From Trichocoleus desertorum NBK24 (GTDB lineage: Bacteria; Cyanobacteriota; Cyanobacteriia; FACHB-46): 64,000 nucleotides of DNA. The stretch spans positions 591,628-655,627 of the forward strand of contig NZ_CP116619.1 of the NCBI RefSeq assembly GCF_030409055.1, read 5' to 3'. Shown here piece after piece: positions 4,195 to 32,876 of the stretch (positions are counted from its first letter, which is position 1; each line of letters begins with the position of its first letter). Both the position numbers and the translations under genes were made by a program. Under the pieces are notes generated by a model. It was not told the DNA's origin. It did not search any database and saw only the letters and a list, made by a program, of their open reading frames with translations.

Positions 4195-4340
4195 ACAAAA
4201 GGCTCAAGACTAGCAGTTCTGACAAATACCCATTAAGGATGCCCTTCCAAGGCGATCGCCCCACTCACCCTAATGAGGGAATGGCTCACTAAGATGCTTG
4301 CGAGCCGCATTCTCTCGTTGACCCATTGCATCCCCCACAA

Positions 4341-4456
4341 TTGAAACAGGCTCTAAGGAGAGCCAGAATTATCAGCTCCGAGTGGAGTGATGAGGTAACT
4401 CTAGACTAGCTAGGTAACTTTTTACGGTGTTATAAGAAAGACCCGTTTCACGACTT
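4341..4456 (-). pseudogene. Relic: 3' end of a serine recombinase gene
   Basis: The minus strand from 4456 to the TGA at 4372-4374 encodes the last 28 residues of a resolvase (SRETGLSYNTVKSYLASL, then LPHHSTRS). These match the C-terminal HTH of the complete recombinase at 8064-8693 with only a couple of changes. Similarity also covers the downstream hairpin (4349-4364 against 8041-8056), though here the T-run of the terminator is lost. The N-terminal catalytic domain is absent: similarity stops at about 4456 and the DNA runs directly into the integrase relic. Confidence 0.85.
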
Positions 4457-4478
4457 ATCTATAGATGAGCCCCTACGG

Positions 4479-4784
4479 GTGCTGCTGATGTCGGTTATGC
4501 CTACTAACCCCGGCCCAGATTTCTTAGTCTTCACAACTGTTAAGGGTTGCACTATTGACTCTGGAAACTTTAGGGAGCGGTTATGGGTTAAGGTGCTCAA
4601 GCGATCGGGAGTGCCTTATAGGAAGCTCCACACTATTAGGCACACCTTGATCAGTCACGCCATAGAACAAGGCATCCCAATGACGGGAATCGCTTATCTG
4701 GCTGGTCACAAGGACACAAGGATGGTGATCCAGACTTATGGGCACATAGTTAATAGACCTGACTTGCCAGAAATGCCTATCTGA
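4479..4784 (+). pseudogene. Relic: C-terminal catalytic part of a tyrosine integrase
   Basis: About 100 residues holding the second Arg box of tyrosine recombinases (TIRHTLISHA), the LAGHKD box and the catalytic Tyr in TYGHIVNRPDLP. The first catalytic Arg and the N-terminal DNA-binding domains are missing. The segment matches the C-terminus of the element integrase (31524-32639) in layout, including NFR..W..VL...GV.YRK and RP.LP, but is clearly diverged from it. It therefore belongs to an older or different element of the same family. It follows the resolvase relic directly. Confidence 0.85.
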
Positions 4785-5360: not shown

Positions 5361-5472
5361 AGAACCACGAAGATTCAAACAACTGCCGTTTAAAACAACA
5401 AAACCTGCTCAGTGAGCAGGTCTTATGCGATCGGAGCGGCGGGATTCGAACCCACGACCCCTACTACCCCAA
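5361..5472. repeat. Left copy of the 112-bp attachment repeat (attL side)
   Basis: Aligns without gaps to 32731-32842 with five mismatches, and the last 48 bases are identical. Bases 5432-5472 are the 3' 41 nt of the tRNA-Pro(GGG) gene, from the anticodon loop to the discriminator end, on the minus strand. The 5' half of the tRNA is absent, so this is a tRNA fragment and not a gene. The repeat also includes the tRNA terminator hairpin (around 5402-5422). Identity ends exactly in the anticodon loop, a usual crossover region of tRNA-targeting tyrosine integrases. Confidence 0.9.
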
Positions 5473-5631
5473 GGCAGGAATTTGTACCCTGAAGCTTTCT
5501 GATAGCAGGAGTTCCAAGAATTCTCAATAGCTGGAATACCAACAGGATCGCAATTATGGGCGGGAAGGCGATCGCCTGAAGGGTCGATGCACGGTGCTCG
5601 TTAAGGGCTAGGCTCCTGTTTATGCTGCTTT

Positions 5632-7782: not shown

Positions 7783-8035
7783 TGAATATTGCTCTAATAA
7801 ACTTCTAACTAATCAATAAAAGCTTTAGCAATTCATAGGGAATGAATCGTTTCTTATGAATTGTCCTTGTTTCAGCACGATTCTAGTTTGGCCTAACCTT
7901 AACTCGTACTACAACAAGCTGGCCTAATTCTGGACTGAAAAATCCAACAACATCGGCACTACAAGCGTAATCTATGGTGTTTTTAGAGCCTAAAACCTTC
8001 ATTTCTTCGTTGAGTAATTGCGTACTCTGCAATCG

Positions 8036-8056
8036 AAAAAGGCTCTAAAGAGAGCC
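8036..8056 (-). terminator. Terminator of the serine recombinase gene
   Basis: On the minus strand GGCTCT-CTTT-AGAGCC is followed by five T residues, 8 bp after the stop codon of the recombinase. The diverged copy at 4349-4364 keeps the hairpin but not the T-run. Confidence 0.8.
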
Positions 8057-8063
8057 AGAAGTA

Positions 8064-8693
8064 TTAGCTTCGAGTGGAGTGATGAGGTAGCTCTAGCCTA
8101 GCTAGATAGCTTTTTACCGTGTTATAAGAGAGACCCGTTTCACGAGCTATCCGCCCTTGCGAGTAGCCAGCAACTTGTAGTTCGGCCAGTTGGTCTTTCC
8201 ACTGTTCAAAGCCATCAGGACGACCTAAAACTTTTCCCTGCGATCGCACTCGTTGGAGTCCTGCCTTGGTTCGTTCTGAGATGCGGGCTGCCTCTTGTTG
8301 TGCGAGGTAGGCCAACACTCCCACAACGATGTGGGCCACCAATTCATTCTCGGTATCAAGCAGCGGCTCAGTATAGCTCTTGAACCTACAGCCTAGATTG
8401 CTGAGTTGCTGGAGATAAGCGATCGTCTTGCGGATACCCTCACGACTAAAGCGATCGAGTGACCAAAACAGCACTAAGTCAAACTTTCGCTTAGCTGCAT
8501 CTTCAAACATGCGGCTGAAGTCGCCACGTTCGCGCTTCCCCTTTCGGCCAGATTCGCGATCAACGTAGGTTTCAACAATCTGCCAACCTTGGCGATCACA
8601 AAACTCTTGTAGTTGAAAAAGCTGGTTGTCAGTGTCTTGCCCTCTGTCAGTTGTTGAGATTCGTAAGTAGAGAGCGCAAACTGTTTTTTTCAT
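8064..8693 (-). CDS. Serine recombinase (resolvase/invertase family)
   Basis: 209 residues, the normal size of a small serine recombinase. The N-terminus has the catalytic motif LYLRISTTDRG with the nucleophile Ser and the nearby Arg. FWSLDRFSREG is the conserved D-R-x-x-R helix, and the C-terminus (YSQGRIARETGLSYNTVKSY) is an HTH_7-type DNA-binding domain. It may resolve element multimers or invert a segment. Upstream repeats at 8703-8810 could be its recombination or operator site. Its 3' end exists a second time at 4341-4456. Confidence 0.9.
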   Translation of the reverse strand: MKKTVCALYLRISTTDRGQDTDNQLFQLQEFCDRQGWQIVETYVDRESGRKGKRERGDFSRMFEDAAKRKFDLVLFWSLDRFSREGIRKTIAYLQQLSNLGCRFKSYTEPLLDTENELVAHIVVGVLAYLAQQEAARISERTKAGLQRVRSQGKVLGRPDGFEQWKDQLAELQVAGYSQGRIARETGLSYNTVKSYLARLELPHHSTRS

Positions 8694-8702
8694 GCCGTAA
8701 GG

Positions 8703-8810
8703 CTATCAAAAAAGGACCGTTTATTGATAGTTCTAAAAGAAGAATTTAACCCATTGATTTAGGGTACTTTCAGCCTCTCCAATTTGTACCCCTTTTTTGA
8801 TAGTCCTAAA
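8703..8810. promoter_or_regulatory. Repeat-rich region between recombinase and the long operon: candidate res/operator
   Basis: Holds a 13-bp inverted repeat, CTATCAAAAAAGG at 8703-8715 and its complement at 8791-8803. It also holds a direct repeat, TTGATAGTTCTAAA at 8724-8737 and TTGATAGTCCTAAA at 8797-8810. So TTGATAG occurs three times, once inverted, between two divergent transcripts. This layout suits a resolvase site or a shared operator; nothing in the sequence decides between the two. Confidence 0.5.
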
Positions 8811-8869
8811 TAGACTGTTTAAAAATTAGAGGGCATACTAGGGCCAATAGTACAGAGGCTCTAAGCAAA

Positions 8870-9199
8870 ATGGCTGAACCACTTTTAACCGCAATCTTTG
8901 GCCCCAACGCAGTACAAGATGCAAATACTCTAACAATTTCAAAGACAGACCTAGCTACGGTAGGTTTAACTCCCGCTGCTGGCAACCGAGCTGAATCGCT
9001 TTTCGCTGCGATCATTCGGTTGGCTGAACCAACCTTGACGACTACAGCACAAGAGACGAATCCAGACCAAAATATCACAATTGAGGATGGCTTCCCTTCG
9101 TTGATTGAGCGCAACGACGTGGCGTATAGAAGGAATCAAAAAACCATTTCATTTGACAAAGTTGACACTCAATCATCGATTGACCCTGACGACTACTAA
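8870..9199 (+). CDS. Unknown protein, first gene of the long element operon
   Basis: 109 residues; family not recognised. Residues 23-52 (ISKTDLATVGLTP, then NRAESLFAAI and LAEPTLT) recur in the next gene as IQKSSLHGLTP, NTAESLLAGL and QAESAFTG. The two are paralogues of one short domain. The C-terminus is acidic. It opens a set of close or overlapping rightward genes ending at 17166, interrupted only by one reversed gene. The promoter probably lies in the repeat region before 8870. Confidence 0.65.
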   Translation: MAEPLLTAIFGPNAVQDANTLTISKTDLATVGLTPAAGNRAESLFAAIIRLAEPTLTTTAQETNPDQNITIEDGFPSLIERNDVAYRRNQKTISFDKVDTQSSIDPDDY

Positions 9200-9201
9200 T
9201 C

Positions 9202-9591
9202 ATGAAAATTCCCCACTCGCTACTATTCGGTGAGGGATTCTATCAAGATTCCCAGGTAATCAAGATTCAAAAATCTTCCTTGCATGGGTTAACTCCTTTA
9301 CCTAATAACACCGCTGAAAGCTTATTAGCTGGCTTAGTTCTGCAAGCCGAAAGCGCCTTTACTGGAGTGCTTTTAGATGAGGATGAACAACCGTTATTAG
9401 ATGAGCTAAACAAACCTCTAGAGTATGACTCCTCATTGCTCTATGAGTCGTTACAGGTCTCTCTATGGCGGTTCTTGTTTCAAACCAAGAAGGGTGTACC
9501 CGTTGCTACTCACACATTCCTTATACAATTTTTCGCTTCACCCACCATCCCCTATGAACAACCCATTGAACCCAAGGATCTAGAGCTGTGA
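9202..9591 (+). CDS. Unknown protein, paralogous domain to its upstream neighbour
   Basis: 129 residues, starting 2 bp after the previous stop. The N-terminal ~45 residues share the I.K..L..LTP....AESL.A motif with the gene at 8870. The remainder (SLWRFLFQTKKGVPVATHTFLIQFFASP) has alternating hydrophobic residues suggesting beta strands. The last codons overlap the next gene's GTG start (GTGA). No function can be assigned. Confidence 0.65.
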   Translation: MKIPHSLLFGEGFYQDSQVIKIQKSSLHGLTPLPNNTAESLLAGLVLQAESAFTGVLLDEDEQPLLDELNKPLEYDSSLLYESLQVSLWRFLFQTKKGVPVATHTFLIQFFASPTIPYEQPIEPKDLEL

Positions 9592-10409
9592 AACTGTCCT
9601 TAAAACCGCCAATAGAATCAATTGATGAGCTAACAAAATTCCCATTAATAGAGGGTGTGACCAATGCTGTAAAACTAGCTAGCTTTGAACAATTGCAAGC
9701 AAGCTTTGGTAATAGCAATAGTGGATCTATAGGTAGGGATTTTCAGTCTCAGGTACTGCTAGATATGCCTGAGCTATTTACAGACTTTGACCTTGAAGGA
9801 GACGGAAGAATAAGCGATGTAAGCGGATTTGGTAGCCACGGCACCGGAGTTGGAAGCTACACGATCGGCGGGTCTATCTTGCCATTTGCACCTAACAGCA
9901 AGTCTTTAGTGTGTGATGGAGCCACGGGCAAGATCCGATTCAATGCGGAAGCGATACCAGCCAGTAACACCGCAAGAGTAACCCTCATGGGTTGGGCGGT
10001 TGCTTCTGCCAGTGCAAAAGGAATGATGCTCAGCCTTGGCGGAAACGAAAGCGGAACCTCAGGTGAGGGAATTGCGATCGGATATGGTGGCGCAAATATC
10101 GACCAGCCGGGCCTAGTTCCCTGTGCTTTTTCTCAGGGTGTAGCTTACGTCAATGGTTCAAATACTGTTAGCCCTGGACTGCATCATCTAGCGCTAACAG
10201 TAAGTGAGCGCGAATGGCGAATTTATGTAGATGGCAAGCTTTTTCATTTTCAAACGTCTGATGTCTTAGCTACTCAGGGTAGAGGGCACATAGGCGGATA
10301 TAGCAACCGAACTTCTAACTTTGGAATTGCTTACCCTGCTTACTATTCATCTGCCTTACCACATAGCAGAATCAAAGCCCACTATCTAGCAACTAAGGCC
10401 ACGCTGTAG
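9588..10409 (+). CDS. LamG/concanavalin A-like lectin-fold protein
   Basis: 273 residues from a GTG start overlapping the previous stop. Residues ~90-270 resemble a laminin-G/concanavalin-like jelly roll: SLVCDGATGKIRF, a VTLMGWAV strand, then HHLALTV...WRIYVDGKLF, which is the typical 'calculate and display' strand pair of LamG_3 domains, and GHIGGYSNR. The ~60 N-terminal residues are a separate region. LamG-like domains are common in tail-fibre, surface-binding and adhesion proteins, so a role in contact with a surface or glycan is a fair inference, not a proof. Confidence 0.65.
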   Translation: MKLSLKPPIESIDELTKFPLIEGVTNAVKLASFEQLQASFGNSNSGSIGRDFQSQVLLDMPELFTDFDLEGDGRISDVSGFGSHGTGVGSYTIGGSILPFAPNSKSLVCDGATGKIRFNAEAIPASNTARVTLMGWAVASASAKGMMLSLGGNESGTSGEGIAIGYGGANIDQPGLVPCAFSQGVAYVNGSNTVSPGLHHLALTVSEREWRIYVDGKLFHFQTSDVLATQGRGHIGGYSNRTSNFGIAYPAYYSSALPHSRIKAHYLATKATL

Positions 10410-10419
10410 AGGTTGTTCA

Positions 10420-11094
10420 ATGTCTAGTCACTGTGCCAATGAACCACCAGTGACGGTACTTATCCAATATAAAGACGGCAAAAAAGAGGAGGTTATATCT
10501 GCCTCTGTCCCCATCACTGTAGAGGTTAGAAAAAAGTCAGGGTTGCAAACAGAAGATCCTGACCCAAACACGCCTACTGGTGGATGCTGTGATGTCGCCT
10601 ACGAAGTGAAGCTGACCTATCAATATTGTGCGCTAGGTTCAGAGCCTAACACTTGTAGTGGGGAAACTATAACCGCTCCACCAGTAGAACTAGATGTGGT
10701 AGGTAAGATTTTAGGAACCCGTGTTACTCAATTCCAAGGCACAGACAATGCAATTGAACTTACTAGGAGAGGATGCGACGGAATAGAGCAAAAGCTCAAT
10801 TTAATCGGCTTGAGTTCACAGAAACTAGTCAGTTATTCAATCCAGTCAATTGCTAGAGCTGACGGAAAACCAGACATCTGTGACCCTCCTGACCCTGAGG
10901 CGGGAAAGTGCGAAATCATAATCAAAAGCTCCAACGGTTCACTTATTTACACAAAGACCGATGATTGCCCTATCAAATATAAAGTTCGATGCGGTGATCA
11001 ATGCGCCGAAGGTGAGATTAGGTGTGAGTCTAATTCATATCCTGGGTATTGCTGTACTGATTGTGCAGATTTAGCGAGAAGTTTACGGAGGTAA
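10420..11094 (+). CDS. Cysteine-rich unknown protein
   Basis: 224 residues with about 20 cysteines, concentrated at GGCCDVAYEV, YQYCAL, a central RRGCDG, DICDPP, GKCEII and the C-terminal CGDQCAEGEIRC...GYCCTDC. No signal peptide is visible, although so many Cys would suit metal binding or disulfides. Beta-strand-like sequence dominates. Start ATG with AGAGG 7 nt upstream. Not recognised. Confidence 0.6.
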   Translation: MSSHCANEPPVTVLIQYKDGKKEEVISASVPITVEVRKKSGLQTEDPDPNTPTGGCCDVAYEVKLTYQYCALGSEPNTCSGETITAPPVELDVVGKILGTRVTQFQGTDNAIELTRRGCDGIEQKLNLIGLSSQKLVSYSIQSIARADGKPDICDPPDPEAGKCEIIIKSSNGSLIYTKTDDCPIKYKVRCGDQCAEGEIRCESNSYPGYCCTDCADLARSLRR

Positions 11095-11096
11095 TT

Positions 11097-11315
11097 GTGG
11101 CTAATTGTGGAGATTTAGAGCGGGGTTTACAGGATATGAATCGGCGTATCCGCGAACTGGAAAGACAAGCTGGTGGGGGAGGTGGCGGTACAGGTAACAA
11201 TAATTTTGATGAGGAAAGGATAGTTCAAAAAGTTCTAGCTAGGTTGTGGAAACATCCTAAGTGGGTAGCTGTCACTGAATGTCTTGAAGTAATTCTTTAT
11301 GGGAAGGTGAGCTAA
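11097..11315 (+). CDS. Small coiled-coil protein
   Basis: 72 residues from a GTG start with GGAGG 5 nt upstream, which I prefer over the longer TTG form at 11061 that overlaps the previous gene. It has a short coiled coil (LQDMNRRIRELERQ), a poly-Gly hinge (six consecutive Gly) and a helical tail. Its stop overlaps the next gene's ATG (TAATG), so it is probably translationally coupled to the 844-residue protein. Confidence 0.6.
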   Translation: MANCGDLERGLQDMNRRIRELERQAGGGGGGTGNNNFDEERIVQKVLARLWKHPKWVAVTECLEVILYGKVS

Positions 11316-13849
11316 TGCCAGTAGATGTTTTAGTAATGGCAAGAGAAGCGAAGTTAATTCGTAGCGGATTGCCACTTAAGGAACTAGTAGAACGTTCAAA
11401 ACTGATTGAACAATTAGAACGACAATTAGGGGGAGTGAAAACTGATGCTATTAAAGCAGGCGAGGTCGCCAAACAAGCTAATACTGAAGCAAAAAAGGCG
11501 ACTGAATCAGCGAATATATACAAACGAGAGTTTGAGAGAGCGAAAACTCAAATAGGGAGGGATTTTAATAAATTCAAAGGTGATGTAGACAGAGTTACTA
11601 AACCTTTGCAAGAAGGCTACAAAAAAATAGACAACGGAGTGCAACGACTCACTAAAGGTCTAGATAAATTTGGAGCGGCTGCGGGTATCGGTTTTGGGCT
11701 TGCAGGGGTTGTTATTTCGTTCGCTGCATTGTGGACAAGCGAACGAAATCAAGCAGCGTTCGATAAACAAATCGACCGATTCCAAGTTGATATGACGGCT
11801 CAGGGAGGCTTCAATCTTAGGATTCAGAATCGAGTAAAAAAACTTAGAGAGGAGTTCGACGCTTACAAGAAGAAATCAGAGAAAACTTTTGACTACATTT
11901 CTCAAGACTTAAAACTAGCGCGTCGAATCGCTGATGCCGCCAAAAAACAGGCAAACGACATTACCTATGAGGCACGTACAAGACTAAAAAAATTAAACGA
12001 CCTTGTAGCGCAAGCTAACAGCAACGTGACAAAGGCACTCAAGCAGGATACGACCATTCAACAGTCAGTCAGTAAACTGCAAACCACTGTCAAGACTGTA
12101 GATGCGAACGTCAAAAAAGTAGAGGTTAAGGCTACTAAGGCAGAGTCAGAGGCGACACAGGCTAGAAACGGGGTCAAACTCGTAGACAGCAAGGCTACTA
12201 CAGCTTTGACTGCTAGCCAGCAATTGCCAGCAAAGATCCCATCAATAGTCCAAAACCAGATCGCCCCACTCAAGACCCAGGTGCTAGCGGCTGAAACTAC
12301 CGCTAAAAAAGCGATCGCTGAAAATCCTCCGCAAAACCAACGAATCACAGCACTAGAAAACAAGGTGCAAGCGATTCAGAACGCACCTAAGACCAATACC
12401 CCGACCACTAACCAACCGGGAACCAATACCCCAACAGTTAACCAAGCTGAAATCAATCGGGCTGTAAATAATTCCATCGCCGGGTTTGGCATCCTACCAA
12501 GGCTCACAGCAGCGCAAGCCACAGCGGATGCAGCATTAGCACGATCCACGGCTGCATTGAATAAACCGGAGCTAGACCCTATCGGACGAAGTGCGCTTGC
12601 CCTTGGCACCAATAACGCAGCCGCGATCGACAAACTCAACCGGGACATTCAGGCGCTCAAAGCTCCAAATCTGCTAGAGCCGCGATTGACCACGATAGAA
12701 ACCAAAGTAAGGGAGCGAGAAAGGGTGGATGCAGCAGCTAATCAGAAACTAGATCAACTGGTAGCCGATCGCTCGAAGCTTGACCTAATGCTTACTGGCC
12801 TGGGTGGACTCGCTCTCATGGCACCAGCAATCATCAACAATCTAGGGCCAAAGATTGACGGTATCCCAGATAAAGCAGCTAACGCCGTGGCTAGTGCTCC
12901 TTGTAACGCTAGGGGTTGCGGTGGCAAAACATCTGCCAAGGTTGATGGCCTGTCTGAGCAAGTCTCTGGACTGAGTAGCAAGTTAGACAAATTTAACGCG
13001 GGTGCAAACCTTGGGCAGTTGGCTCTGTTAACGAGAATTGATTCAACTACTCAGGGAATCACCAATAAGCTTGGCGCACCTATCCCCGGCGGCATCGGAG
13101 GATTGCTGCAAAAGTTCTCTAATTCCTTTGAGAAGTTCGCAGAGTGGGCACATCTGGATCGAGTGCTCAATATTCTTACCCTTACCGCAACGGTCCACAA
13201 TGCCTACATGTTGAGCAACGGGCTGAGTCAGACATTCTTCAGCATGGTTTCCAATGTGTTGGCAGCGGTTGGCATCAAAGACAAAGAGAACAATCCGCTT
13301 GACATCAACAAGATAGTAGGAACTAGCATTGAAAACTTGTTTAAGCAGATGCTAGGGGTTGCAACCGTTGATGGGATTAAGGCTGAGTGGAAGAAGTATA
13401 ACCGGATTTTGCAATCAGCTAGTAACCTACTTTGGAGCTTCCAGAGCATCGGCTACTCGATCCTAGGCTCGCTAGAAATCATTGCTAACTGGAATGCTTT
13501 GGTAGCCAATGCCCTCAAGAAATTTGGTGTAGTGGGTGAACGGGCTTATAAGTGGTTCAATCCTGAAGTCAACTTTCAAAATCGATTTTTTACAGCCATT
13601 GATAAGGCTGAAAATTTCGTGAGCAACATTGATCAAGTGGCACAAGAGACGCTGAGCATTCAGGAAACCATCACGCAGATAGGTAAGCAAAAGAAAGAAT
13701 TGGCTGATTCAGTAGCTCAGCTCGACAATTCCCCCCAACGTCCTCAAGTGCCTGAAGCGGCCAAAGTCGCAGCATCCAGCGCAACAGAGAAAGCAACTAG
13801 TGCTTCTCCCACAATCACAGTTACCGACCAAGTTAAAGCAGAGGTTTAA
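11315..13849 (+). CDS. Large coiled-coil protein with hydrophobic segments
   Basis: 844 residues, the largest element protein. Long heptad-rich Ala/Lys/Gln stretches (about 30-130, 165-330 and 430-480) alternate with hydrophobic segments: GIGFGLAGVVISFAALW near 122, LMLTGLGGLALMAPAII near 495 and a helical region near 625-665. A Pro/Thr/Asn linker with a repeat (NTPTTNQPG, NTPTVNQAE) sits near 365. The C-terminal tail is Pro/Ala/Ser-rich. Long helical rods with hydrophobic patches are seen in tail tape-measure proteins and in membrane-spanning appendage proteins; neither family is established here. Confidence 0.65.
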   Translation: MPVDVLVMAREAKLIRSGLPLKELVERSKLIEQLERQLGGVKTDAIKAGEVAKQANTEAKKATESANIYKREFERAKTQIGRDFNKFKGDVDRVTKPLQEGYKKIDNGVQRLTKGLDKFGAAAGIGFGLAGVVISFAALWTSERNQAAFDKQIDRFQVDMTAQGGFNLRIQNRVKKLREEFDAYKKKSEKTFDYISQDLKLARRIADAAKKQANDITYEARTRLKKLNDLVAQANSNVTKALKQDTTIQQSVSKLQTTVKTVDANVKKVEVKATKAESEATQARNGVKLVDSKATTALTASQQLPAKIPSIVQNQIAPLKTQVLAAETTAKKAIAENPPQNQRITALENKVQAIQNAPKTNTPTTNQPGTNTPTVNQAEINRAVNNSIAGFGILPRLTAAQATADAALARSTAALNKPELDPIGRSALALGTNNAAAIDKLNRDIQALKAPNLLEPRLTTIETKVRERERVDAAANQKLDQLVADRSKLDLMLTGLGGLALMAPAIINNLGPKIDGIPDKAANAVASAPCNARGCGGKTSAKVDGLSEQVSGLSSKLDKFNAGANLGQLALLTRIDSTTQGITNKLGAPIPGGIGGLLQKFSNSFEKFAEWAHLDRVLNILTLTATVHNAYMLSNGLSQTFFSMVSNVLAAVGIKDKENNPLDINKIVGTSIENLFKQMLGVATVDGIKAEWKKYNRILQSASNLLWSFQSIGYSILGSLEIIANWNALVANALKKFGVVGERAYKWFNPEVNFQNRFFTAIDKAENFVSNIDQVAQETLSIQETITQIGKQKKELADSVAQLDNSPQRPQVPEAAKVAASSATEKATSASPTITVTDQVKAEV

Positions 13850-13851
13850 TC

Positions 13852-14679
13852 ATGCCCTTACCAGAAACTTTTTCACCTTGGGAGCACTTACAAAATGTTG
13901 TGATGCAGGTACAAAATCGGCGCGTCCGAAAAGAGTTCAATGATGTAGGGGGAGACGACTGGGACCCAGACATTACAACTTCACGAGCCAGTCTCAGAGT
14001 AGCTTGCACCTTGCGGGACGATGACTCAATCCTTCAAACTTTCATCCGTTTGTGGTTGTTTGACGTGACTCTATTAGGTGCATCAAATTTACATCCGGCC
14101 ATTTATGGAATTCCAGTTACAAGCTTTCAAGAGTCAGTCAAATTTCTGCCACAAATACGACTGTATTTTTCGGAAGATTTAGCCCAAGTTGAGGATGATT
14201 TTGAACCCGTTGAGGCTGAAATTTCCTTTAGGCTGGTTGGTCAAACTTCTACAACTTTGACTCAGTCAGAGATGAGAGCTTACGCCAACAAAATCAGAAC
14301 TGCTTTTGCTGCGGGGTCTGGTTTCACATGGAAGAAAGGCCGACTCAAAGCCAGCTATAAAGACCAACATCATGGATACAACATGATTCTTACAATTTGG
14401 TCTGAAGCAGAAGCTAAACGGGTAATAGAACAGGTTCTAGATATTCAAGGCCATGCTCCAAACTGGGATTTTTTAACAGTAAACGAACCTAAACAAACGT
14501 TCCCCATTGTTCCAGGATTTCAAAATATTTTAGGCAAGTCGCGACGCAAGCCCAGAGAGCGCCCGATTGCTTACGTTCGCTTTCGATATGCAGAGCTAAA
14601 ACTTCACGGCCTGCCCAACGACATCACCTTAGTTGATCGCACTGGATTCAGGAAAAATCCCGTTGTTCAAGCTAGCTAA
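13852..14679 (+). CDS. Unknown protein, probable structural partner
   Basis: 275 residues, starting 2 bp after the coiled-coil gene. Mixed alpha/beta with no membrane segment; residues 40-60 hold an acidic DVGGDDWDPD and the C-terminal third is basic (GKSRRKPRERP). Its last 8 bp overlap the end of the convergent gene 14672-15037. Family not recognised; size and place suggest that it works with the 844-residue product. Confidence 0.6.
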   Translation: MPLPETFSPWEHLQNVVMQVQNRRVRKEFNDVGGDDWDPDITTSRASLRVACTLRDDDSILQTFIRLWLFDVTLLGASNLHPAIYGIPVTSFQESVKFLPQIRLYFSEDLAQVEDDFEPVEAEISFRLVGQTSTTLTQSEMRAYANKIRTAFAAGSGFTWKKGRLKASYKDQHHGYNMILTIWSEAEAKRVIEQVLDIQGHAPNWDFLTVNEPKQTFPIVPGFQNILGKSRRKPRERPIAYVRFRYAELKLHGLPNDITLVDRTGFRKNPVVQAS

Positions 14680-15037
14680 CAGTTCCTACAATTTCAGTTG
14701 CACTAGCAACGCGAATTCTAGAGTTAATTGCTCCGGATTGCGTGACGTAGCCATCCACAACAGCACCTCCACTGGTTGCGGGTGGAAAGGCGTTCAAGCG
14801 TTCACCTTCCGGTTGACTTTCATTAGCAACTGCTTGAGCAGTAGCGCAAGCTTCACGGAAGCGGGTTAGAAGTTTTACCATGCAGGGCTGATTCAAATTC
14901 GGAACCGTATCACCGAACAATAAAGACAGGCTTACCATTACTCCGATATTGCCAACTGGGTCTTCTCCTACGAAGAACGAATTAGCAGGCAGTTGAGCGA
15001 GAACTTGAGCGGGGGTAAGGTCTGTGAGTTGAGCCAT
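14672..15037 (-). CDS. Unknown protein, reversed inside the operon
   Basis: 121 residues. Begins AQLTDLTPAQVLAQLP and is rich in Val, Gly and Ser later (SGGAVVDGYVTQSGAINSRIRVA), which reads like beta sheet. It is the only leftward gene between 8870 and 17166 and overlaps its neighbour tail to tail by 8 bp. A poly-A-rich 150-bp gap separates its start from the next rightward gene, giving room for divergent promoters. Family not recognised. Confidence 0.55.
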   Translation of the reverse strand: MAQLTDLTPAQVLAQLPANSFFVGEDPVGNIGVMVSLSLLFGDTVPNLNQPCMVKLLTRFREACATAQAVANESQPEGERLNAFPPATSGGAVVDGYVTQSGAINSRIRVASATEIVGTVS

Positions 15038-15187
15038 AGGAATTAAAATTTCTCAATTTTTTACTAGCTTAATCGCTATTCGATTTGATTCGATTTGACT
15101 GGAAATACTAGTGTTTCCCGCTGTTTAATGTGACGTTTTTGACGTGTTAATCATGGGATACGTCCTCTTATAGGTTTTATTCCTTTT

Positions 15188-15745
15188 ATGTCGCGAATCC
15201 CAACCGTTGCAGAACTCACACGTCGTTTGAATGCCCTAAAAACCAGAGAAGCAAACCTCAAAGCGCGGCAAGCTGCCAACACTGGACAACGGGTAGGAAT
15301 GGGCCAAAAACGCCCTACAGAATCGGCGGCATATGGTAGTCCTTTCACGCTCAACACCTACACCGTAAACGCTGGAAAAGCAGCGGTTACTTTTTTTGGT
15401 GGCTTGGCTGCTTTAGGTCTAACTGCCCCAGCAGGCGACGATCCGTTACCCCGTGGTTTTAAGGTCGGGCAAGTTAAGGCGACACGTGGGAAAGCAACGG
15501 CAACCAAGGTGACGGCTGAACTGAGCCAACGCTCTTATTTGCGCTATTCGATTGAAGCAGGAACTGACACTCAAGGCACCTTCACAGCACCTCTTACTGG
15601 TGGCACTTTAGCTCTCATTAAGACTAAGTTCACTGCGATCGCTGCTGCTAAGAAAGATGACATTGGCGAGTACGGACGAATTGACTACGTTCCTGAACAG
15701 CCTGTATTTAGCATTGGTGGTGATGCTGGCGCGGCAGCTCCATAG
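15188..15745 (+). CDS. Unknown basic N-terminus/Gly-Ala-rich protein
   Basis: 185 residues. The first 40 are a basic helix (TRRLNALKTREANLKARQ); the rest is Gly/Ala/Thr-rich with alternating strands (KAAVTFFGGLAALGL, SYLRYSIEAGTD). Composition and size would suit a self-assembling structural subunit, but I see no capsid or pilin signature. Preceded by a 150-bp AT-rich gap with short repeats (GATTTGATTCGATTTGA). Confidence 0.55.
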   Translation: MSRIPTVAELTRRLNALKTREANLKARQAANTGQRVGMGQKRPTESAAYGSPFTLNTYTVNAGKAAVTFFGGLAALGLTAPAGDDPLPRGFKVGQVKATRGKATATKVTAELSQRSYLRYSIEAGTDTQGTFTAPLTGGTLALIKTKFTAIAAAKKDDIGEYGRIDYVPEQPVFSIGGDAGAAAP

Positions 15746-15760
15746 GGTAGGGCATACACG

Positions 15761-15970
15761 ATGACTGAATTTTCAATGCCTTTGATCTTCCAGCCTCACA
15801 TGTGCCAAGAGGAACTAGAGATTGGGGTTGAGAAGCTGTTTATCCGTACTCAAGCTAGAGAGCTTTGGCTCTCTGGTGGCTGTACGACTGAGGAGTTTCT
15901 AGACCTGGTGAATGAACAGAAAATTGATGTCTTCGACTTAGCAGATACTTGGGAATCAGGTAAATTATGA
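15761..15970 (+). CDS. Small unknown protein
   Basis: 69 residues, acidic and helical (CTTEEFLDLVNEQKIDVFDL). Its stop overlaps the next gene's start (ATGA), so the pair is probably translationally coupled. Not recognised. Confidence 0.55.
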   Translation: MTEFSMPLIFQPHMCQEELEIGVEKLFIRTQARELWLSGGCTTEEFLDLVNEQKIDVFDLADTWESGKL

Positions 15971-16494
15971 GCCTGTCGCTTGAGCTGACAGGCTCTAACA
16001 AGTGGAATCGTTTGTACTACCAGCGGCATGAGGGGAACCCTGAGAACCGCAAGGTGCGAGGGCCATACGTAGAACCATTTGAAATTCCGTTTGTGCTCCA
16101 ACAGCGCATTTTGGCTGTGACTTGTACGGCTTCAACGACTGAAATTCGCGCAACTTGGCGTACAGGCGGTTATTTAACTCAGGTTTACTCTGGCATCGAT
16201 TTGATGGGCAGCGGTGATGTGATTCCTGCTGGTGGTGCCTCTCCTACCATTGCGGTGGATGGGGAAAAGAAACGGGTTGGGCTTAATACTGTGGAGCTAG
16301 TCATCTTTCCGCTGCTGGCTCCACAGTTCTATTTGTTCTTCGATCCAGTGCCGTGGCTTAAAAATCTAACCTTTGGGCTGTGGGAATTCACTGGCGTAGA
16401 GCATGACGCAATCCTTGAACAGATTGAAATTGCTAGGGTTGCTTTAGCTCGTATCGAGTTCAAAGTTGATTTTTACAATTCAAACTCAACTTAA
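15967..16494 (+). CDS. Unknown beta-rich protein
   Basis: 175 residues, largely beta-strand-like (ILAVTCTASTTEIRATW, GLNTVELVIFPLLAPQFYLF) with a C-terminal amphipathic helix (DAILEQIEIARVALARIEF). No signal peptide or membrane segment. Coupled to the preceding small gene. Family not recognised. Confidence 0.55.
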   Translation: MSLSLELTGSNKWNRLYYQRHEGNPENRKVRGPYVEPFEIPFVLQQRILAVTCTASTTEIRATWRTGGYLTQVYSGIDLMGSGDVIPAGGASPTIAVDGEKKRVGLNTVELVIFPLLAPQFYLFFDPVPWLKNLTFGLWEFTGVEHDAILEQIEIARVALARIEFKVDFYNSNST

Positions 16495-16505
16495 ATCAGC
16501 GTTAT

Positions 16506-17000
16506 ATGGCTGTTACACCTTTAGAGGTTGTGGTTCCAGCTCTGGCTGGCATCATCACAGCCGGGGGGACAATCCTTACTTTTCGATGGCAAGAGGAGAC
16601 TAAGCGCAAGAAGGACGAGCGCGAAAATCAGGTCACGCTTATTAATAAAGTTGATGAACTGGTTGATGAGCGCATGGCTGAAAGCCGAGCTGATCGGAAC
16701 GAGATGAAGACGCAGCTACGACAAGCAGAAAAAGAGCGCAGAAAATTGGCGGAGGAGCAAGCAACCCTTAAAGAAGCCAATGCAATCTTAAAGTCTCAAA
16801 TCAGCGAAATTCAGTTGCATCGTGAGCAAGCCATCAACCGGATGCGCCAAGAAGTTAATGTCTTGTTTGATAAAAAGACAGTGCTGACGGCTGAAAATGC
16901 TGAACTGAGGACTCAACTAGAATCTTTGGCTGAAGAGAACAGTCGATTGAGGCAGCAAATCAATTGCAGTAGTGAAGATGTACAACAGCAACCACATTGA
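16506..17000 (+). CDS. Membrane-anchored coiled-coil protein
   Basis: 164 residues. One N-terminal membrane segment (VVVPALAGIITAGGTILTF), then a charged coiled coil over nearly the whole remainder (residues ~30-155, ending QLESLAEENSRLRQQI). This single-span 'holder' design resembles phage spanin/holin-adjacent or cell-division accessory proteins in outline only. The last 29 bp overlap the next gene. Confidence 0.6.
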   Translation: MAVTPLEVVVPALAGIITAGGTILTFRWQEETKRKKDERENQVTLINKVDELVDERMAESRADRNEMKTQLRQAEKERRKLAEEQATLKEANAILKSQISEIQLHREQAINRMRQEVNVLFDKKTVLTAENAELRTQLESLAEENSRLRQQINCSSEDVQQQPH

Positions 17001-17166
17001 TCCACAAGACGTTGCGGCTTATAAGCGCATCATTGATCAGATTAGGTTTGATACCCTCACTCCTACTCAAAAGCTTGCTTGTGCCCAGGCGCTAGAGCAA
17101 AAGGCCACTGAGCTGCGCCAAGACTCTGCCGAAGTCAATCGAGCTGCAAAAAATGACGTTTGGTAG
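16972..17166 (+). CDS. Small unknown protein, last gene of the long operon
   Basis: 64 residues, helical and polar (YKRIIDQIRFDTLTPTQKL). It overlaps the end of the coiled-coil gene in another frame and ends 10 bp before the convergent gene at 17177. Not recognised. Confidence 0.45.
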   Translation: MKMYNSNHIDPQDVAAYKRIIDQIRFDTLTPTQKLACAQALEQKATELRQDSAEVNRAAKNDVW

Positions 17167-24080: not shown

Positions 24081-24499
24081 TAAAGATTCAGGGCTAGGAG
24101 AACGCCAATCAGCACACACAGGTAGTGGTAGAACATCAAGCCCCGACCGTTGGGGACGTTCTGAGCCACAAACTTGAATAGCCAAGCCGCTGCAACCAAG
24201 GCGATCGCCCCCACGACGAGGAAGGGAATCAGGTCAGCAGTCCCCCACCAAAGTGGAGAGCTGGTGACGATGACTCCCACCACTACGGATGTGGGGAAGA
24301 TGCGAAAGCTGATTTGTAGTAGCATGTCTCTCGGTCTGGCAGGGGGAAAGAGCAGGTTTAGCCAGTGCCATTGGCTTTCCATCACGGGATGCTGACGGTT
24401 GCTCTGGACGGTGACGGTCTTGGCGGTGGGACGGATGAGGTCTCCCAGGTCGGAGCCTTGGAGAATGATTTTGCTTTGGTCGTGGGGACTATCGGGCAT
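24080..24499 (-). CDS. Membrane protein coupled to the translocase gene
   Basis: 139 residues with membrane spans at about 68-88, 90-108 and 120-138 after a polar N-terminus. Overlaps the next gene by one base (TAATG) and the upstream gene by 11 bp. Probably a partner of the ATPase in the envelope. No family recognised. Confidence 0.6.
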   Translation of the reverse strand: MPDSPHDQSKIILQGSDLGDLIRPTAKTVTVQSNRQHPVMESQWHWLNLLFPPARPRDMLLQISFRIFPTSVVVGVIVTSSPLWWGTADLIPFLVVGAIALVAAAWLFKFVAQNVPNGRGLMFYHYLCVLIGVLLALNL

Positions 24500-27387: not shown

Positions 27388-29118
27388 ATGACAACTAATT
27401 TAACCCAACCCCAAACACTCTCCAGTATCAACGGAGCCATCGCCCCGAAACATTGGGACGAGTGGATCGCCTCCGCCGTTGACCCCGAAATCATCCGGCG
27501 CAACGTTTGGACCATTGAAGACCCACGCGAGGTGGATCAACTCCTCAACCGCAACAACAAACGCAAGTGGAAGCACTCCGAGGAATTGGTGCCCGGTTGG
27601 GCAGTCGGTGGTGTGGACCCCAAAACCGGAGAGCGCTCCTTTAAGGGAGTTCAGTTCAAACCAGATAAATCTCCCATAGACCCAGACACCCAGAAGCCGC
27701 GCAAGTACTTCAGCCCCTCCAAAGTGGCTCTTAGTCCCCTCTTCCTGGAAATGGAAGACCCCGAATACTGGCAGAAGCTCCTACTCGACTTCACCACGCC
27801 GATCATTCTGGCTGAGGGAGCCAAAAAAGCAGGAGCTGTCTTGTCCAAGGGGTTCCCCTGCATCAGCATTCCTGGAGTTGCCACCGGGGGCAAACTGGGA
27901 CGGCTGCGACCAGAGCTAGAGCTGTTTTGCAAATATGGCCGCCGCATCTACCTCGCCTTTGACCGCGACATTTTAAAGAAGCGTCCCGTTCAACAAGCCT
28001 TGCTCAACCTAGGCCGCATGATTGCTGGCAACGGGGCAATGGTCTACGTCCTGGAGTGGAACAACTTTAATAAGGGCATCGATGACTACCTAGCAGCAGG
28101 TGGTGATCTCCAGAGCCGCATTTACGATGCCAAGACCCTGGAAGAGTGGCGAGACGAACAGGAAGACGAACCCACCGAGCTGATGGAGATCGAAACCTGT
28201 CGCTTAGCCATGCGCTACAAAATGGTGAACGAAAAACTCAAAGGCCGTCTCAGATTCAACAACCTCAAAGGGGAGGTCGAACTGGATGGGCAAACAGCAG
28301 ATGTGGACGACTTACGAATTTATCTAGCCTTGAAGCACAACATTGATATTCCTGCCGAGGATTGCGCTCAGATTGTTACTTACATCTCTAAGCAGCAACT
28401 CTACAACCCCGTCGCTGAATACCTGCATCAATGCGCTGCTCTCTATGACCCAGACCCAGAGTTGCTGGCGTCTATTGCCAAGACATACCTCGGTACTGAC
28501 TCAGAGCTACACGCCACTTTCATTCGTAAAACTCTCATTAGTGCAGTAGCGCGATCGCTCTCCCCTGGATGCAAAGTGGACACCGTTTGCATCCTTGCAG
28601 GCCGTCAAGGTGTGGGTAAGTCTTCTTTCTGGAGAGTCTTGGCTGGTGACTGGTTCGACGACTCGATCGGCTCAGTCTCAGATAAGGATGAACGGCTCAA
28701 GCTTCACCAATCCTGGTTTGTGGAGTGGGCAGAGTTAGAGGCCGTGTTCAAACGCCGAGACATTAGTGCAGTAAAAGCTTTTATCACCACCCAGACCGAC
28801 CAAATCCGACCACCCTATGGTCGAACGGTGAAGGAGTTCCCCAGGCCGTCGATTATTGTCGGTACCACCAACTTTAATGAATTCCTTGCAGACCCCACAG
28901 GTAATAGACGGTTCTGGGTAGTCCCCATCCAACATGATTGGATTCCCCTCGATGACTTAGCAAGTGAGCGCGATCGCATTTGGGCCGCTGCTACCCATGC
29001 CTTCATGCAAGGGGAGAGCTGGACACTTCCCACCGAGATGAAGGAGCAGGCCGTGGAAGCAGGGCAAGAGTACGAACTCTCAGACCCGTGGGAAGAAGCG
29101 GTACTCATACCAATTTAA
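27388..29118 (+). pseudogene. Primase-helicase (DUF3854 + VapE/VirE-type), 5' part, broken by IS630
   Basis: 576 codons to a stop provided by the inserted IS. Residues ~120-240 are a DUF3854/Toprim-like region (PIILAEGAKKAGAVLSKG, IYLAFDRD, GIDDYLAAGG). Residues ~370-560 are a VapE/VirE-type superfamily-3-like ATPase with Walker A GRQGVGKSS, WFVEWAEL as Walker B, and GTTN...DPTGNRRFWVVPI with sensor and arginine finger. The family replicates plasmids, satellites and integrated elements. The 3' part resumes at 30257; deleting the IS with one AT copy restores a single frame, so the break is recent. Confidence 0.85.
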
Positions 29119-30847: not shown

Positions 30848-31251
30848 ACCGCAAGCTCTACCCCAAAAACTGGGACGCGATCGCCCTCGCCATCAAAACC
30901 GAAGTGAACTGGACCTGTGAAAATTGCGATCGCCCTTGCCGTCGTCCTGGTGAAACTGACGGGGACTTGCAGGACCGCATCTATAACGAGCACGCCCAAT
31001 GGTGGGACGACCTCTGGGAAACCGAGGACGACGAAGAATTTGGCGAAATCGAGCACATAAAGCCTGTGAGATTTACCCTCACCGTGGCTCACCTCGACCA
31101 CCAGCCGGAGAACTGCGATCGCTCCAACTTACGCGCCTGGTGCTCGGTGTGCCACTGCCGCTATGACTTAAAGGCCATGCCCCTCAAGAAACGACTGAAA
31201 GCAGAGCGCGAGGGCCAACTGAATTTATTAGTGGGGGTGGACAATGCCTAA
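30838..31251 (+). CDS. HNH-like zinc-finger protein
   Basis: 137 residues overlapping the previous stop by 10 bp. CENCDRPCRRPG and WCSVCHCRYD supply the two Cys pairs, and between them come IEHIKPV and TVAHLDHQPENCDRSNL, the order of HNH/McrA-type nucleases (H..H, N, H/C). It may be a nicking or homing-type nuclease or only a structural zinc protein. Sits between the replication gene and the excisionase-like gene. Confidence 0.65.
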   Translation: MPMNRKLYPKNWDAIALAIKTEVNWTCENCDRPCRRPGETDGDLQDRIYNEHAQWWDDLWETEDDEEFGEIEHIKPVRFTLTVAHLDHQPENCDRSNLRAWCSVCHCRYDLKAMPLKKRLKAEREGQLNLLVGVDNA

Positions 31252-31588
31252 AGCCAAATCGCTCGAACCGCTGTTTGTTCTCAACCCTCAGCGAGCCGCG
31301 GCACTACTCGACATCAGCACCGACACCCTCGATCGCTATCGCATCGATTCACAAATTGGGTGGATTCAAGGCGTTCACTGGTTCCAACTCCCCCGTGGCG
31401 GCTACCGCTACAACAAGGAAATGCTTGAGGATTGGCTAGCAAATCTCCACGACCCAGAAACCCATCAACGGGCAGTCGAGCATTTTAGAGCGTCACTGCT
31501 CAGCAGTCGAGGACGGCGATCGCTCAAGCATCCCCCAGCAGGTCAGGTAGTTGAGGGCGACTTTTCACATTCCCCGCATAATGCCTAA
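31244..31588 (+). CDS. Excisionase-like HTH protein (Xis candidate)
   Basis: 114 residues. The N-terminal half has a winged-HTH/MerR-like pattern (NPQRAAALLDISTDTLDRYR, then GVHWFQLPRGGYRYN), typical of recombination directionality factors and of small DNA-binding partners of integrases. It starts 7 bp inside the HNH-like gene and overlaps the integrase gene by 65 bp tail to tail. The pairing with the adjacent integrase is an inference from position. Confidence 0.65.
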   Translation: MPKAKSLEPLFVLNPQRAAALLDISTDTLDRYRIDSQIGWIQGVHWFQLPRGGYRYNKEMLEDWLANLHDPETHQRAVEHFRASLLSSRGRRSLKHPPAGQVVEGDFSHSPHNA

Positions 31589-32639
31589 ACAGCGTTTCCT
31601 GCGTGTGCCCCGTCAGCTCACTTACTTCCGCTGGTGACATGCCCCTATCTAGCGCATGGCTCACCAGCGTGGCTCGTGTCGTCCTGGGCTTGCGATATTC
31701 CACGCCAGCCTCAGCTAGTACCGTTTTCCAGGCTCGGTTTCTAAAATTGTGGTCATCAATGGGTGCACCTCTGGCAGAAGGGAACACCAATTCGTTAGGG
31801 TCAATCTTCTTGGGCCTGCGAGCCAGCAACATCTTTTGCAAATGCATCGTTAAATTGACAAACCGCTCATCCTCAGTTTTTAATCCCTTAAATTGGCCCC
31901 GGTAGTAACTTTGTATAAAGTGAACTACCGAGCAATCATCGTTTAAGTGTCGCCACTTCAGGGCGATCGCCTCACCTAAACGGCAACCAGTACCGAGCAA
32001 AAACTCAACATAGTCTGCATAGTGGCTGTAGTAGCGGTCAGCATGGAAGCTCTCAACAATCCGCTTAATCTCTGCATCAGAGAACGGCTTCGGTTTCTGT
32101 TGCCGTGGCACCTTCACCTTAATTTCCTGCCAAGGGTTGGAATGAACCCACTTTTTCTTAATGGCCCAATTCCAGCAGGCATTTACCAGAGAGATTCGCT
32201 CGCGTAGAGTAATGGGTTCTACTCGCTTCCCTAGCCAGCTCCTAAACTTCTCCGCTTCAGTTTCCCCAATTTGGACAACCAACTTAGTTCTAAAAAATAA
32301 CCCTAGATGCCCCAACAGCCCCTGATACTTAGCCAAGGATTGAGGGTGTAAGTTTTTGGTTTTGTAATCAATAAATTTCTGAAATAGCTCAACCACTAAG
32401 AGTGACTGCTGCTTGCTGCCCTCTGGCCTGTAGCGGTCGAGGGTGCGGTCAAAAACTCCCGCTGCCATGTGGCTTTCAATCAATCGGGCCTTGGCCTCTG
32501 ATACCTTCCGGTTCGTTACTGTGTCGGGCAACTCCATGTAAAGGTAATACCGCTGCCCCTGGTAGCTCCATCGCAACCGCAAGCGATCGCGAATTATCTC
32601 GACTACCACCGTTCCCTTAGAGTTTTTCTTGACTGGCAT
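31524..32639 (-). CDS. int: Tyrosine integrase of the element
   Basis: 371 residues from the ATG at 32639 (MPVKKNSKGTVVVEI), which matches the family's usual N-terminus; a start at 32738 would add 33 unrelated residues. N-terminal arm-binding domain (GTVVVEIIRDRLRLRW, YYLYMELPDT), SAM-like core-binding domain, then the catalytic domain: LLGTGCRLGEAIALKW (first Arg), TTRATLVSH (second Arg), LTGHTQ and FRHYAGN (Tyr nucleophile). It reads away from the tRNA-Pro end, as in most tRNA-integrated elements. A diverged relative survives in part at 4479-4784. Confidence 0.93.
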   Translation of the reverse strand: MPVKKNSKGTVVVEIIRDRLRLRWSYQGQRYYLYMELPDTVTNRKVSEAKARLIESHMAAGVFDRTLDRYRPEGSKQQSLLVVELFQKFIDYKTKNLHPQSLAKYQGLLGHLGLFFRTKLVVQIGETEAEKFRSWLGKRVEPITLRERISLVNACWNWAIKKKWVHSNPWQEIKVKVPRQQKPKPFSDAEIKRIVESFHADRYYSHYADYVEFLLGTGCRLGEAIALKWRHLNDDCSVVHFIQSYYRGQFKGLKTEDERFVNLTMHLQKMLLARRPKKIDPNELVFPSARGAPIDDHNFRNRAWKTVLAEAGVEYRKPRTTRATLVSHALDRGMSPAEVSELTGHTQETLFRHYAGNVKSRPQLPDLLGDA

Positions 32640-32769
32640 TGAGTGCAGATTGAGATCAGAGTGCGACCAAACTGCACTCATTCTCTGCCCCTCTATGCCG
32701 TCTTCAGCCCCTTTTTGCGGATTGCTATTGAGAACCACGAAGATTCAGATAACTGCCGTTTAAAACAAC

Positions 32770-32792
32770 AAAACCTGCTCAATGAGCAGGTT
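32770..32792 (-). terminator. Terminator of the tRNA-Pro gene
   Basis: AACCTGCTC-ATT-GAGCAGGTT on the minus strand followed by a T-rich run. It lies inside the duplicated segment, and an almost identical copy is at 5400-5422. Confidence 0.75.
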
Positions 32793-32801
32793 CTATGCGA
32801 T

Positions 32802-32876
<75 letters not shown>

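What the first reader, a model, noticed from the sequence alone, without database searches (positions are those of the whole stretch)
8870..17166. An 8.3-kb operon of unrecognised structural-looking proteins is the best candidate for a new system
About a dozen genes with 2-12 bp gaps or stop/start overlaps: two paralogous small proteins, a LamG-like lectin fold, a protein with ~20 Cys, an 844-residue coiled-coil rod with hydrophobic patches, several beta-rich proteins and a membrane-anchored coiled coil. No phage capsid, portal or terminase and no secretion ATPase is seen among them. Rod + lectin + anchor suggests a surface structure or particle.
Basis: partly seen in the sequence, partly recalled or inferred. 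Interest (0 to 1): 0.75.

Follow-up and report, generated by a model that had tools for sequence, protein, structure and literature searches.

The report
Headless phage-like operon of cyanobacterial elements
This is the late (particle and cell-lysis) gene block of a widespread, undescribed family of small mobile DNA elements in cyanobacteria: it carries phage-style host-binding fibres and lysis genes but no recognisable phage head or DNA-packaging gene, so it may define a new kind of small virus.

Summary
The operon is real and is not a surface appendage. It sits in a 27.4-kb integrated element (117-bp direct repeats at 5361-5477 and 32731-32847, tRNA-Pro). A core (P109-type first gene, coiled-coil ROD, P275, p185, p69, p175, membrane coiled coil) recurs in the same order at most of 35 well-flanked cyanobacterial loci (55 distinct P275 genes; 27 of 386 genomes) under strong purifying selection. 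Complete small elements hold little else: a circular 14,575-bp contig and a 12,578-bp tRNA-Phe element carry only this operon, a primase-helicase, small genes and (in one) an integrase. In relatives the operon includes tail-fibre domains, a tail-fibre assembly protein, holin-like proteins and endolysins. No capsid, portal, terminase, sheath or conjugation protein was found, and none of 22 host genomes matches PF05065, PF04860 or PF03354. Core proteins match nothing by sequence; two predicted folds match nothing clearly. Best reading: virion-and-lysis operon of a small temperate virus-like element of unknown particle type; rivals are a fibre-carrying satellite or a plasmid-borne tail-like bacteriocin. 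Absence from IMG/VR counts against abundant virions. The window copy's replication gene is split by an insertion sequence.

The parts
5361..5477 (+). attL: 117-bp direct repeat (left end of the element)
   Evidence: 94% identical to 32731-32847, spacing 27,370 bp
32731..32847 (+). attR: 117-bp direct repeat reaching into the 3' half of tRNA-Pro(ggg) 32801-32874 (-)
31524..32738 (-). tyrosine integrase of the element
   Evidence: PF00589 8.8e-18 plus arm and SAM domains
31244..31588 (+). AlpA/excisionase-like small DNA-binding protein
   Evidence: phrog_66 0.0013 (weak)
27388..29118 (+). DUF3854 + VapE-like primase-helicase (replication); 3' part split off by an IS630-type insertion, remnant at 30251-30436
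   Evidence: PF05272 9.8e-75, PF12965 1e-27; relatives 865-1203 aa, tblastn split
8064..8693 (-). serine resolvase/invertase, divergent to the operon; relatives have a ~190-aa tyrosine recombinase in this slot
   Evidence: PF00239 3.4e-33
8698..8808 (.). recombinase-site-like inverted repeat (18 nt, 89%, 75 nt apart) in the operon's upstream region
8870..9199 (+). P109: first gene of the operon, conserved family with C-terminal IDPDDY
9202..9591 (+). P129: paralogue of P109
   Evidence: hhalign 99%
9588..10409 (+). LamG-like fibre/adhesin in the variable slot
   Evidence: PF13385 3.8e-5, below cut-off; slot holds other fibre types in relatives
10420..11094 (+). Cys-rich (15 Cys) beta protein ending in a CC motif
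   Evidence: family found in 13 of the first 40 regions, window included
11061..11315 (+). p84: small coiled-coil protein
   Evidence: family in 7 loci
11315..13849 (+). ROD: variable coiled-coil part plus conserved ~250-aa C-terminal domain with hydrophobic helices
13852..14679 (+). P275: most conserved core protein
   Evidence: 55 distinct relatives; AF2 pLDDT 83, no clear fold match; dN/dS 0.05-0.08 in closest pairs
14672..15037 (-). p121: operon gene inverted here relative to relatives
   Evidence: 34% and 32% identity to plus-strand homologues in L033 and L075
15188..15745 (+). p185: core protein, N-terminal helix + small ferredoxin-like alpha/beta domain (same family as c10/c18)
   Evidence: hhalign 94.6%; AF2 pLDDT 73.5, no match
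15761..15970 (+). p69: small acidic core protein
   Evidence: 25 of 35 loci
15967..16494 (+). p175: beta-rich core protein, (near-)invariant W64, G68, W130
16506..17000 (+). cc164: one TM segment + coiled coil, holin-like
   Evidence: phrog_2658 'hol-like' 1.2e-8
16972..17166 (+). p64: small last ORF of the operon (no relative found)

Best explanation
The block is the late (particle and lysis) operon of a small temperate, phage-plasmid-like genetic element of cyanobacteria. The element lives integrated at tRNA genes or as a circle and replicates with its own primase-helicase. On induction the P109/P129, ROD, P275, p185, p69 and p175 products assemble in the cytoplasm into a particle. The variable LamG, F5/8C or tail-fibre-type proteins give host binding, ROD is a (probably trimeric) tether or injection component whose conserved hydrophobic C-terminal domain docks to P275, and the TM coiled-coil protein (plus holin/endolysin in some members) opens the cell. 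I think the particle most likely carries the element's own DNA, i.e. a small virus with an unrecognised virion. Shown: element borders, gene set, conservation, phage fibre/lysis genes in the operon of relatives. Inferred: assembly, induction, DNA content and the role of each protein. My split: phage-type late operon 0.85; own DNA-carrying virion 0.45.
For: att repeats and integrase; complete elements made almost only of this operon plus replication: a circular 14,575-bp contig with exact 141-bp end overlap and a 12,578-bp element between 43-bp repeats at tRNA-Phe; conserved order at 35 flanked loci; purifying selection strongest on P275, p185 and p175, weaker on fibre genes and the rod part; tail fibre (phrog_24210 1.7e-18; PF21882 1e-10), tail-fibre assembly (5.2e-7) and endolysins (1.2e-30, 3.4e-9) in relatives' operons; hol-like TM protein in the window (1.2e-8); a fibre-slot gene shared with Nodularia phage kac65v151, downstream of its tape-measure gene; no export signals; ROD carries collagen repeats in some members.
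Against: No capsid, portal, terminase or conserved packaging ATPase was found, and the two predicted core folds resemble no known capsid clearly. Scans of IMG/VR with P275, ROD, P109 and p185 queries and tblastn of phage records gave no relative, although novel virions without marker genes could be missing there. The window element has a split replication gene.
Confidence: 0.5

Rival explanations
1. Phage satellite: the element (10-27 kb, integrase + VapE-type primase) uses a helper phage's head and packaging motor, but unlike known satellites brings its own fibre/tail-like and lysis module.
For: Size and replication genes are satellite-like; no head or packaging genes; circular 14-16 kb genomes with primase and integrase but few structural genes were recovered from a virus-size fraction of cryoconite and read as P4-like satellites (PMC4490671; homology to the present elements not tested).
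Against: Satellites normally lack virion and lysis genes; none of 22 carrier genomes has a PF04860, PF05065 or PF03354 match, so no resident helper of those types (other terminase families not tested).
Confidence: 0.22
2. Plasmid-borne tail-like bacteriocin: the operon builds a DNA-free, fibre-tipped killing particle released by lysis, maintained on plasmids and integrated elements much as colicins are.
For: Fibres + rod + holin/endolysin without head or packaging genes is the tailocin gene plan; plasmids pHT582-1 and -2 carry the operon with Par genes and are typed non-mobilizable.
Against: No sheath or tube homologue was seen; the whole small element is devoted to the operon plus replication, which looks like a replicon that spreads rather than a chromosomal weapon; no immunity gene was recognised.
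Confidence: 0.16
3. Exported surface adhesin or appendage.
For: LamG-like, F5/8C-like and collagen/coiled-coil parts.
Against: No signal peptides, no secretion genes, operon ends in holin/endolysin-type genes in relatives.
Confidence: 0.05
4. Domesticated or decaying prophage remains kept for another use.
For: The window replication gene is split; pHT582-2 has a truncated P109 and lost p185-p175.
Against: Low dN/dS on the core across elements; an intact-looking circular contig and an intact-looking tRNA-bounded element exist; two near-identical copies in one chromosome suggest recent movement.
Confidence: 0.07

Closest known systems
Tailed-phage late regions (Caudoviricetes), e.g. Nodularia phage vB_NspS-kac65v151
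   Same: Fibre-type proteins, tail-fibre assembly protein, holin-like and endolysin genes; one fibre-slot family shared with kac65v151 gp127
   Different: No recognisable MCP, portal, terminase, sheath or major tail protein; core families without PHROGs hits and P275, ROD and P109 without a tblastn match in 50,697 phage records
P4/PICI-type phage satellites
   Same: 10-27 kb, tRNA-site integrase, VapE-type primase-helicase, no head genes
   Different: Carry a particle/lysis operon of their own; no resident helper genes of the tested types
Phage-plasmids and DUF3854 (CyRepA) cyanobacterial plasmids (PMC10079941)
   Same: DUF3854 replication protein; circular forms, Par genes in pHT582-1 and -2
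   Different: Late operon unrelated by sequence to known phage genes
R/F-type tailocins and extracellular contractile injection systems
   Same: Fibres plus long rod plus lysis genes without a head
   Different: No sheath, tube, baseplate or AAA+ homologues; on replicating elements
Tycheposons (marine picocyanobacterial integrative elements; from memory)
   Same: tRNA-site integrative elements with replication genes in cyanobacteria
   Different: Not compared by sequence; no report of this late operon known to me

Membership tests
Caudoviricetes (tailed phage) | HK97-type major capsid protein, portal, large terminase | tested here: not met
   No such hit among the operon proteins and the main element proteins by Pfam and PHROGs (the HerA-type ATPase gives only a P-loop hit, 4.6e-4); 0 of 22 carrier genomes for PF05065, PF04860, PF03354. 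Sequence profiles only.
Caudoviricetes (tailed phage) | Tail fibre and lysis genes in a late operon | tested here: met
   In relatives: phrog_24210 1.7e-18, PF21882 1e-10, phrog_188 5.2e-7, phrog_90 1.2e-30
P4/PICI-type satellite | Integrase, excisionase-like regulator, primase-helicase | tested here: met
   (window; excisionase hit weak); integrase and primase-helicase also in G027
P4/PICI-type satellite | No virion structural or lysis genes of its own | tested here: not met
   Much of the element is a late operon with fibre/lysis genes in relatives; that the core is structural is inference
P4/PICI-type satellite | Needs a helper phage | not testable with these tools
   Only the absence of three helper gene families in 22 genomes
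Tailocin / contractile injection system | Tail tube or sheath homologues | tested here: inconclusive
   No Pfam or PHROGs sequence hit for the window operon; fold comparison of only two proteins, without match
Tailless viruses with jelly-roll capsid (Tectiliviricetes, Sphaerolipoviridae) | Jelly-roll major capsid protein | tested here: inconclusive
   P275 and p185 models are alpha/beta; beta-rich p175 and P109 not modelled
Tailless viruses with jelly-roll capsid (Tectiliviricetes, Sphaerolipoviridae) | FtsK/HerA-type packaging ATPase beside capsid genes | tested here: not met
   HerA-like ATPase (DUF87 3.8e-5) at 22683-24185 has a relative in only one other of the 40 regions compared
Phage-plasmid | Plasmid-type replication/partition plus phage genes on one replicon | tested here: met
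   pHT582-1: ParB, tyrosine recombinase, full core operon; circular contig L075
Conjugative element (ICE) | Relaxase and type IV secretion genes | tested here: not met
   None among the window element proteins searched; both plasmids typed non-mobilizable

The most novel reading that the evidence does not exclude
A new lineage of small (about 10-27 kb) temperate DNA viruses of cyanobacteria whose virion is built from P275, p185, p175, P109 and ROD, unrelated to HK97, jelly-roll or other known capsids, without a terminase or dedicated packaging ATPase, yet sharing exchangeable receptor-binding fibres and lysis genes with tailed phages, and missed by marker-gene virus searches.
Probability: 0.4. 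Interest if true: 0.9.

Novelty: new variant of a known kind. Interest (0 to 1): 0.72.

Why it matters
About 7% of sampled cyanobacterial genomes (27 of 386, 22 of 143 genera) carry a conserved phage-style late operon that no phage or virus collection searched here contains. If it makes a DNA-carrying particle, it is a virus group invisible to marker-based viromics and possibly a new virion architecture; if it makes a satellite's own adhesion/tail module or a plasmid-borne bacteriocin, that is also undescribed as far as I could find. Carriers such as Nostoc punctiforme NIES-2108, Anabaena sp. UHCC 0187 and Phormidesmis priestleyi ULC007 make it directly testable.

Tried and rejected
Jelly-roll or HK97 capsid among the core: P275 (pLDDT 83) and p185 (pLDDT 73.5) gave no Foldseek hit at E <= 0.001 and VIA Z at most 4.4; the best viral hit of P275 (Gordonia phage GMA6, a 324-aa protein that I take to be Orf12; E 0.006, TM 0.26) looks like a 2H-phosphoesterase (two HxTx-type motifs, my reading) whose motifs P275 lacks, so it was dropped. 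Tape-measure identity of ROD: only weak PHROG hits to the C-terminal-type domain (E 0.02-0.05), and collagen repeats fit poorly; left open. Conserved packaging ATPase: the window's HerA-like ATPase is not conserved. CRISPR-spacer matches to the operon: none convincing in 386 genomes; a 35-bp hit lies inside a long ORF. Anti-phage defence: no PADLOC hit in the five operon proteins scanned. Short tyrosine recombinase as the integrase of the elements: it lies next to the operon also in chromosomal copies, so resolution or inversion is more likely; not tested. L076 (10.67 kb) as a second circle: end repeat imperfect, only suggestive. Literature: no description of these families found in seven searches of the open-access library.
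Full report
WHAT IS THERE. The window is part of a complete cyanobacterial chromosome (5.46 Mb). At 8870-17166 twelve plus-strand ORFs cover 94% of the stretch, mostly with overlaps or gaps of up to 15 bp. The exception is a 508-bp gap after P275 that holds a gene on the opposite strand (14672-15037). Its homologues lie in operon orientation in two relatives (34% and 32% identity), so this segment is inverted in the window. The paralogy of the two small first proteins (99% by profile comparison), the long coiled coil with hydrophobic patches and the membrane-anchored coiled coil are confirmed. LamG is sub-threshold and the Cys protein has 15, not 20, cysteines.

THE ELEMENT. A 117-bp direct repeat (94%) at 5361-5477 and 32731-32847, the latter in the 3' half of tRNA-Pro, brackets 27.4 kb, with a tyrosine integrase next to the tRNA. 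Inside lie a weakly excisionase-like protein, an HNH endonuclease, a DUF3854 + VapE-like primase-helicase, a HerA-like ATPase, a truncated KAP-type NTPase that matches the PADLOC candidate defence family PDC-S49, a serine resolvase and the operon. DUF3854 proteins are replication proteins of cyanobacterial plasmids (PMC10079941). The primase gene is split by an IS630-type insertion: relatives align to 27388-29109 and again at 30251-30436. This copy is therefore probably not a fully working replicon.

A CONSERVED MODULE. P275 as a query finds 27 of 386 sampled cyanobacterial genomes (22 of 143 genera, single sequence and profile agree) and two plasmids of Nostocales HT-58-2. All 22 genome-contig hits are cyanobacteria. 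Among 55 distinct P275 genes, 35 have enough flank to judge. Of these, 31 have a P109-type first gene, 34 a ROD-slot protein, 31 a p185-slot protein, 25 p69, 31 p175 or a replacement, 30 a short TM protein downstream, 24 a recombinase and 17 a replication gene within the fetched stretch (slots assigned by profile and position). p185 and the divergent families c10/c18 are homologous (94.6%). Selection is strongly purifying on the core: in the closest pairs dN/dS is 0.05-0.08 for P275 and 0.06-0.21 for p185/p175 families, while ROD's rod part and fibre genes diverge faster. ROD has a conserved C-terminal domain (58% identity over about 210 aa to the plasmid copies) and an N-terminal part that may be coiled coil, collagen-like or Pro/beta-rich.

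COMPLETE SMALL ELEMENTS. In genome G027 a 43-bp repeat at tRNA-Phe brackets 12,578 bp containing the operon (P109, a 223-aa protein in the Cys slot, ROD, P275, p121, p185, p69, p175, TM coiled coil), small regulator-like genes, a primase-helicase and an integrase, nothing else large. Contig JACMKO010000387.1 (14,716 bp, Leptolyngbya MAG) ends in an exact 141-bp repeat, the signature of a circle assembled at k = 141: a 14,575-bp molecule with one primase-helicase and one long late operon. Such elements would have little reason to exist as mobile replicons if the operon did not serve their spread or maintenance (inference).

WHAT THE OPERON DOES. Operons of relatives add recognisable genes in the same run: tail-fibre domains (phrog_24210 1.7e-18; gp53-like C-terminal domain PF21882 1e-10), a tail-fibre assembly protein (phrog_188 5.2e-7), endolysins (phrog_90 1.2e-30; phrog_33083 3.4e-9), an F5/8C-like lectin, and a fibre-slot family shared with Nodularia phage kac65v151, encoded downstream of its tape-measure gene. 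The window's own cc164 matches a hol-like family (1.2e-8). The other operon proteins lack strongly hydrophobic N-termini, so they are most simply assembled in the cytoplasm and released by lysis. This is the plan of a phage late operon. No head, portal, terminase, sheath or transfer gene was found among the operon and main element proteins searched, and none of 22 carrier genomes has a match to PF05065, PF04860 or PF03354.

CORE PROTEINS. P275 (model pLDDT 83) and p185 (73.5) are alpha/beta proteins with no significant Foldseek match (P275: PDB and BFVD; p185: BFVD) and VIA Z at most 4.4 against PDB. P275 is duplicated or fused to the hydrophobic ROD-type domain in some elements.

READINGS. 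Three readings remain. (a) A small virus with its own unrecognised virion fits the element's gene budget best. (b) A satellite that brings fibres and lysis but borrows heads fits the size and VapE primase, but known satellites lack such genes and the tested helper genes are absent from carriers. (c) A plasmid-borne tail-like bacteriocin fits the absence of packaging genes but not the replication-plus-late-operon economy. Against (a): scans of 2.9 million IMG/VR contigs with P275, ROD, P109 and p185 queries and tblastn searches of 50,697 phage records with P275, ROD and P109 found no relative.

VERDICT. Observation partly confirmed and extended: a conserved phage-type late operon with unrecognised core proteins on small cyanobacterial mobile elements. 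Surface-structure reading rejected. Whether it carries DNA is open and directly testable.

Noticed in passing
window 8694-8869; upstream regions in L044, L056, L080, L086, L090: Between the divergent recombinase and the first operon gene lie imperfect palindromes whose arms covary between elements (e.g. TTCCACTTTTAC-N11-GTAAAAGTGGAA); serine and tyrosine recombinases occupy the same slot, suggesting dimer resolution or promoter inversion.
   Followed up: partly
window 4308-4784 and 8000-8151: C-terminal integrase remnant (4479-4784) and a 152-bp, 84% repeat shared with 8000-8151: probably a second, older insertion at the same tRNA-Pro site.
   Followed up: partly
window 29104-30250: IS630-type insertion splits the DUF3854/VapE replication gene.
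   Followed up: yes
window 20000-21640: KAP NTPase lacking its N-terminus, strong match to candidate defence family PDC-S49 (1.6e-177).
   Followed up: no
L042, L053, L062, L064 and window 14672-15037: p185/k37, p175 or p121 segments are inverted relative to the usual order in several elements, so operon segments flip repeatedly.
   Followed up: partly
L002 and L033 ROD; L060, L062, L064 P275: ROD carries collagen-like GXY repeats in some members; P275 is fused to the hydrophobic ROD-type domain in others.
   Followed up: no
L002 9827-14899 (pHT582-2): Decayed plasmid relative carrying a 1,690-aa protein with a MACPF domain (2.1e-6).
   Followed up: no
L042 and L053 (G191 chromosome): Two near-identical copies of the operon in one chromosome, suggesting recent movement or duplication.
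   Followed up: no
window 485-976 and 1843-2433: Two proteins that look like Dps-type ferritins flank an HTH regulator outside the element (sequence reading only).
   Followed up: no
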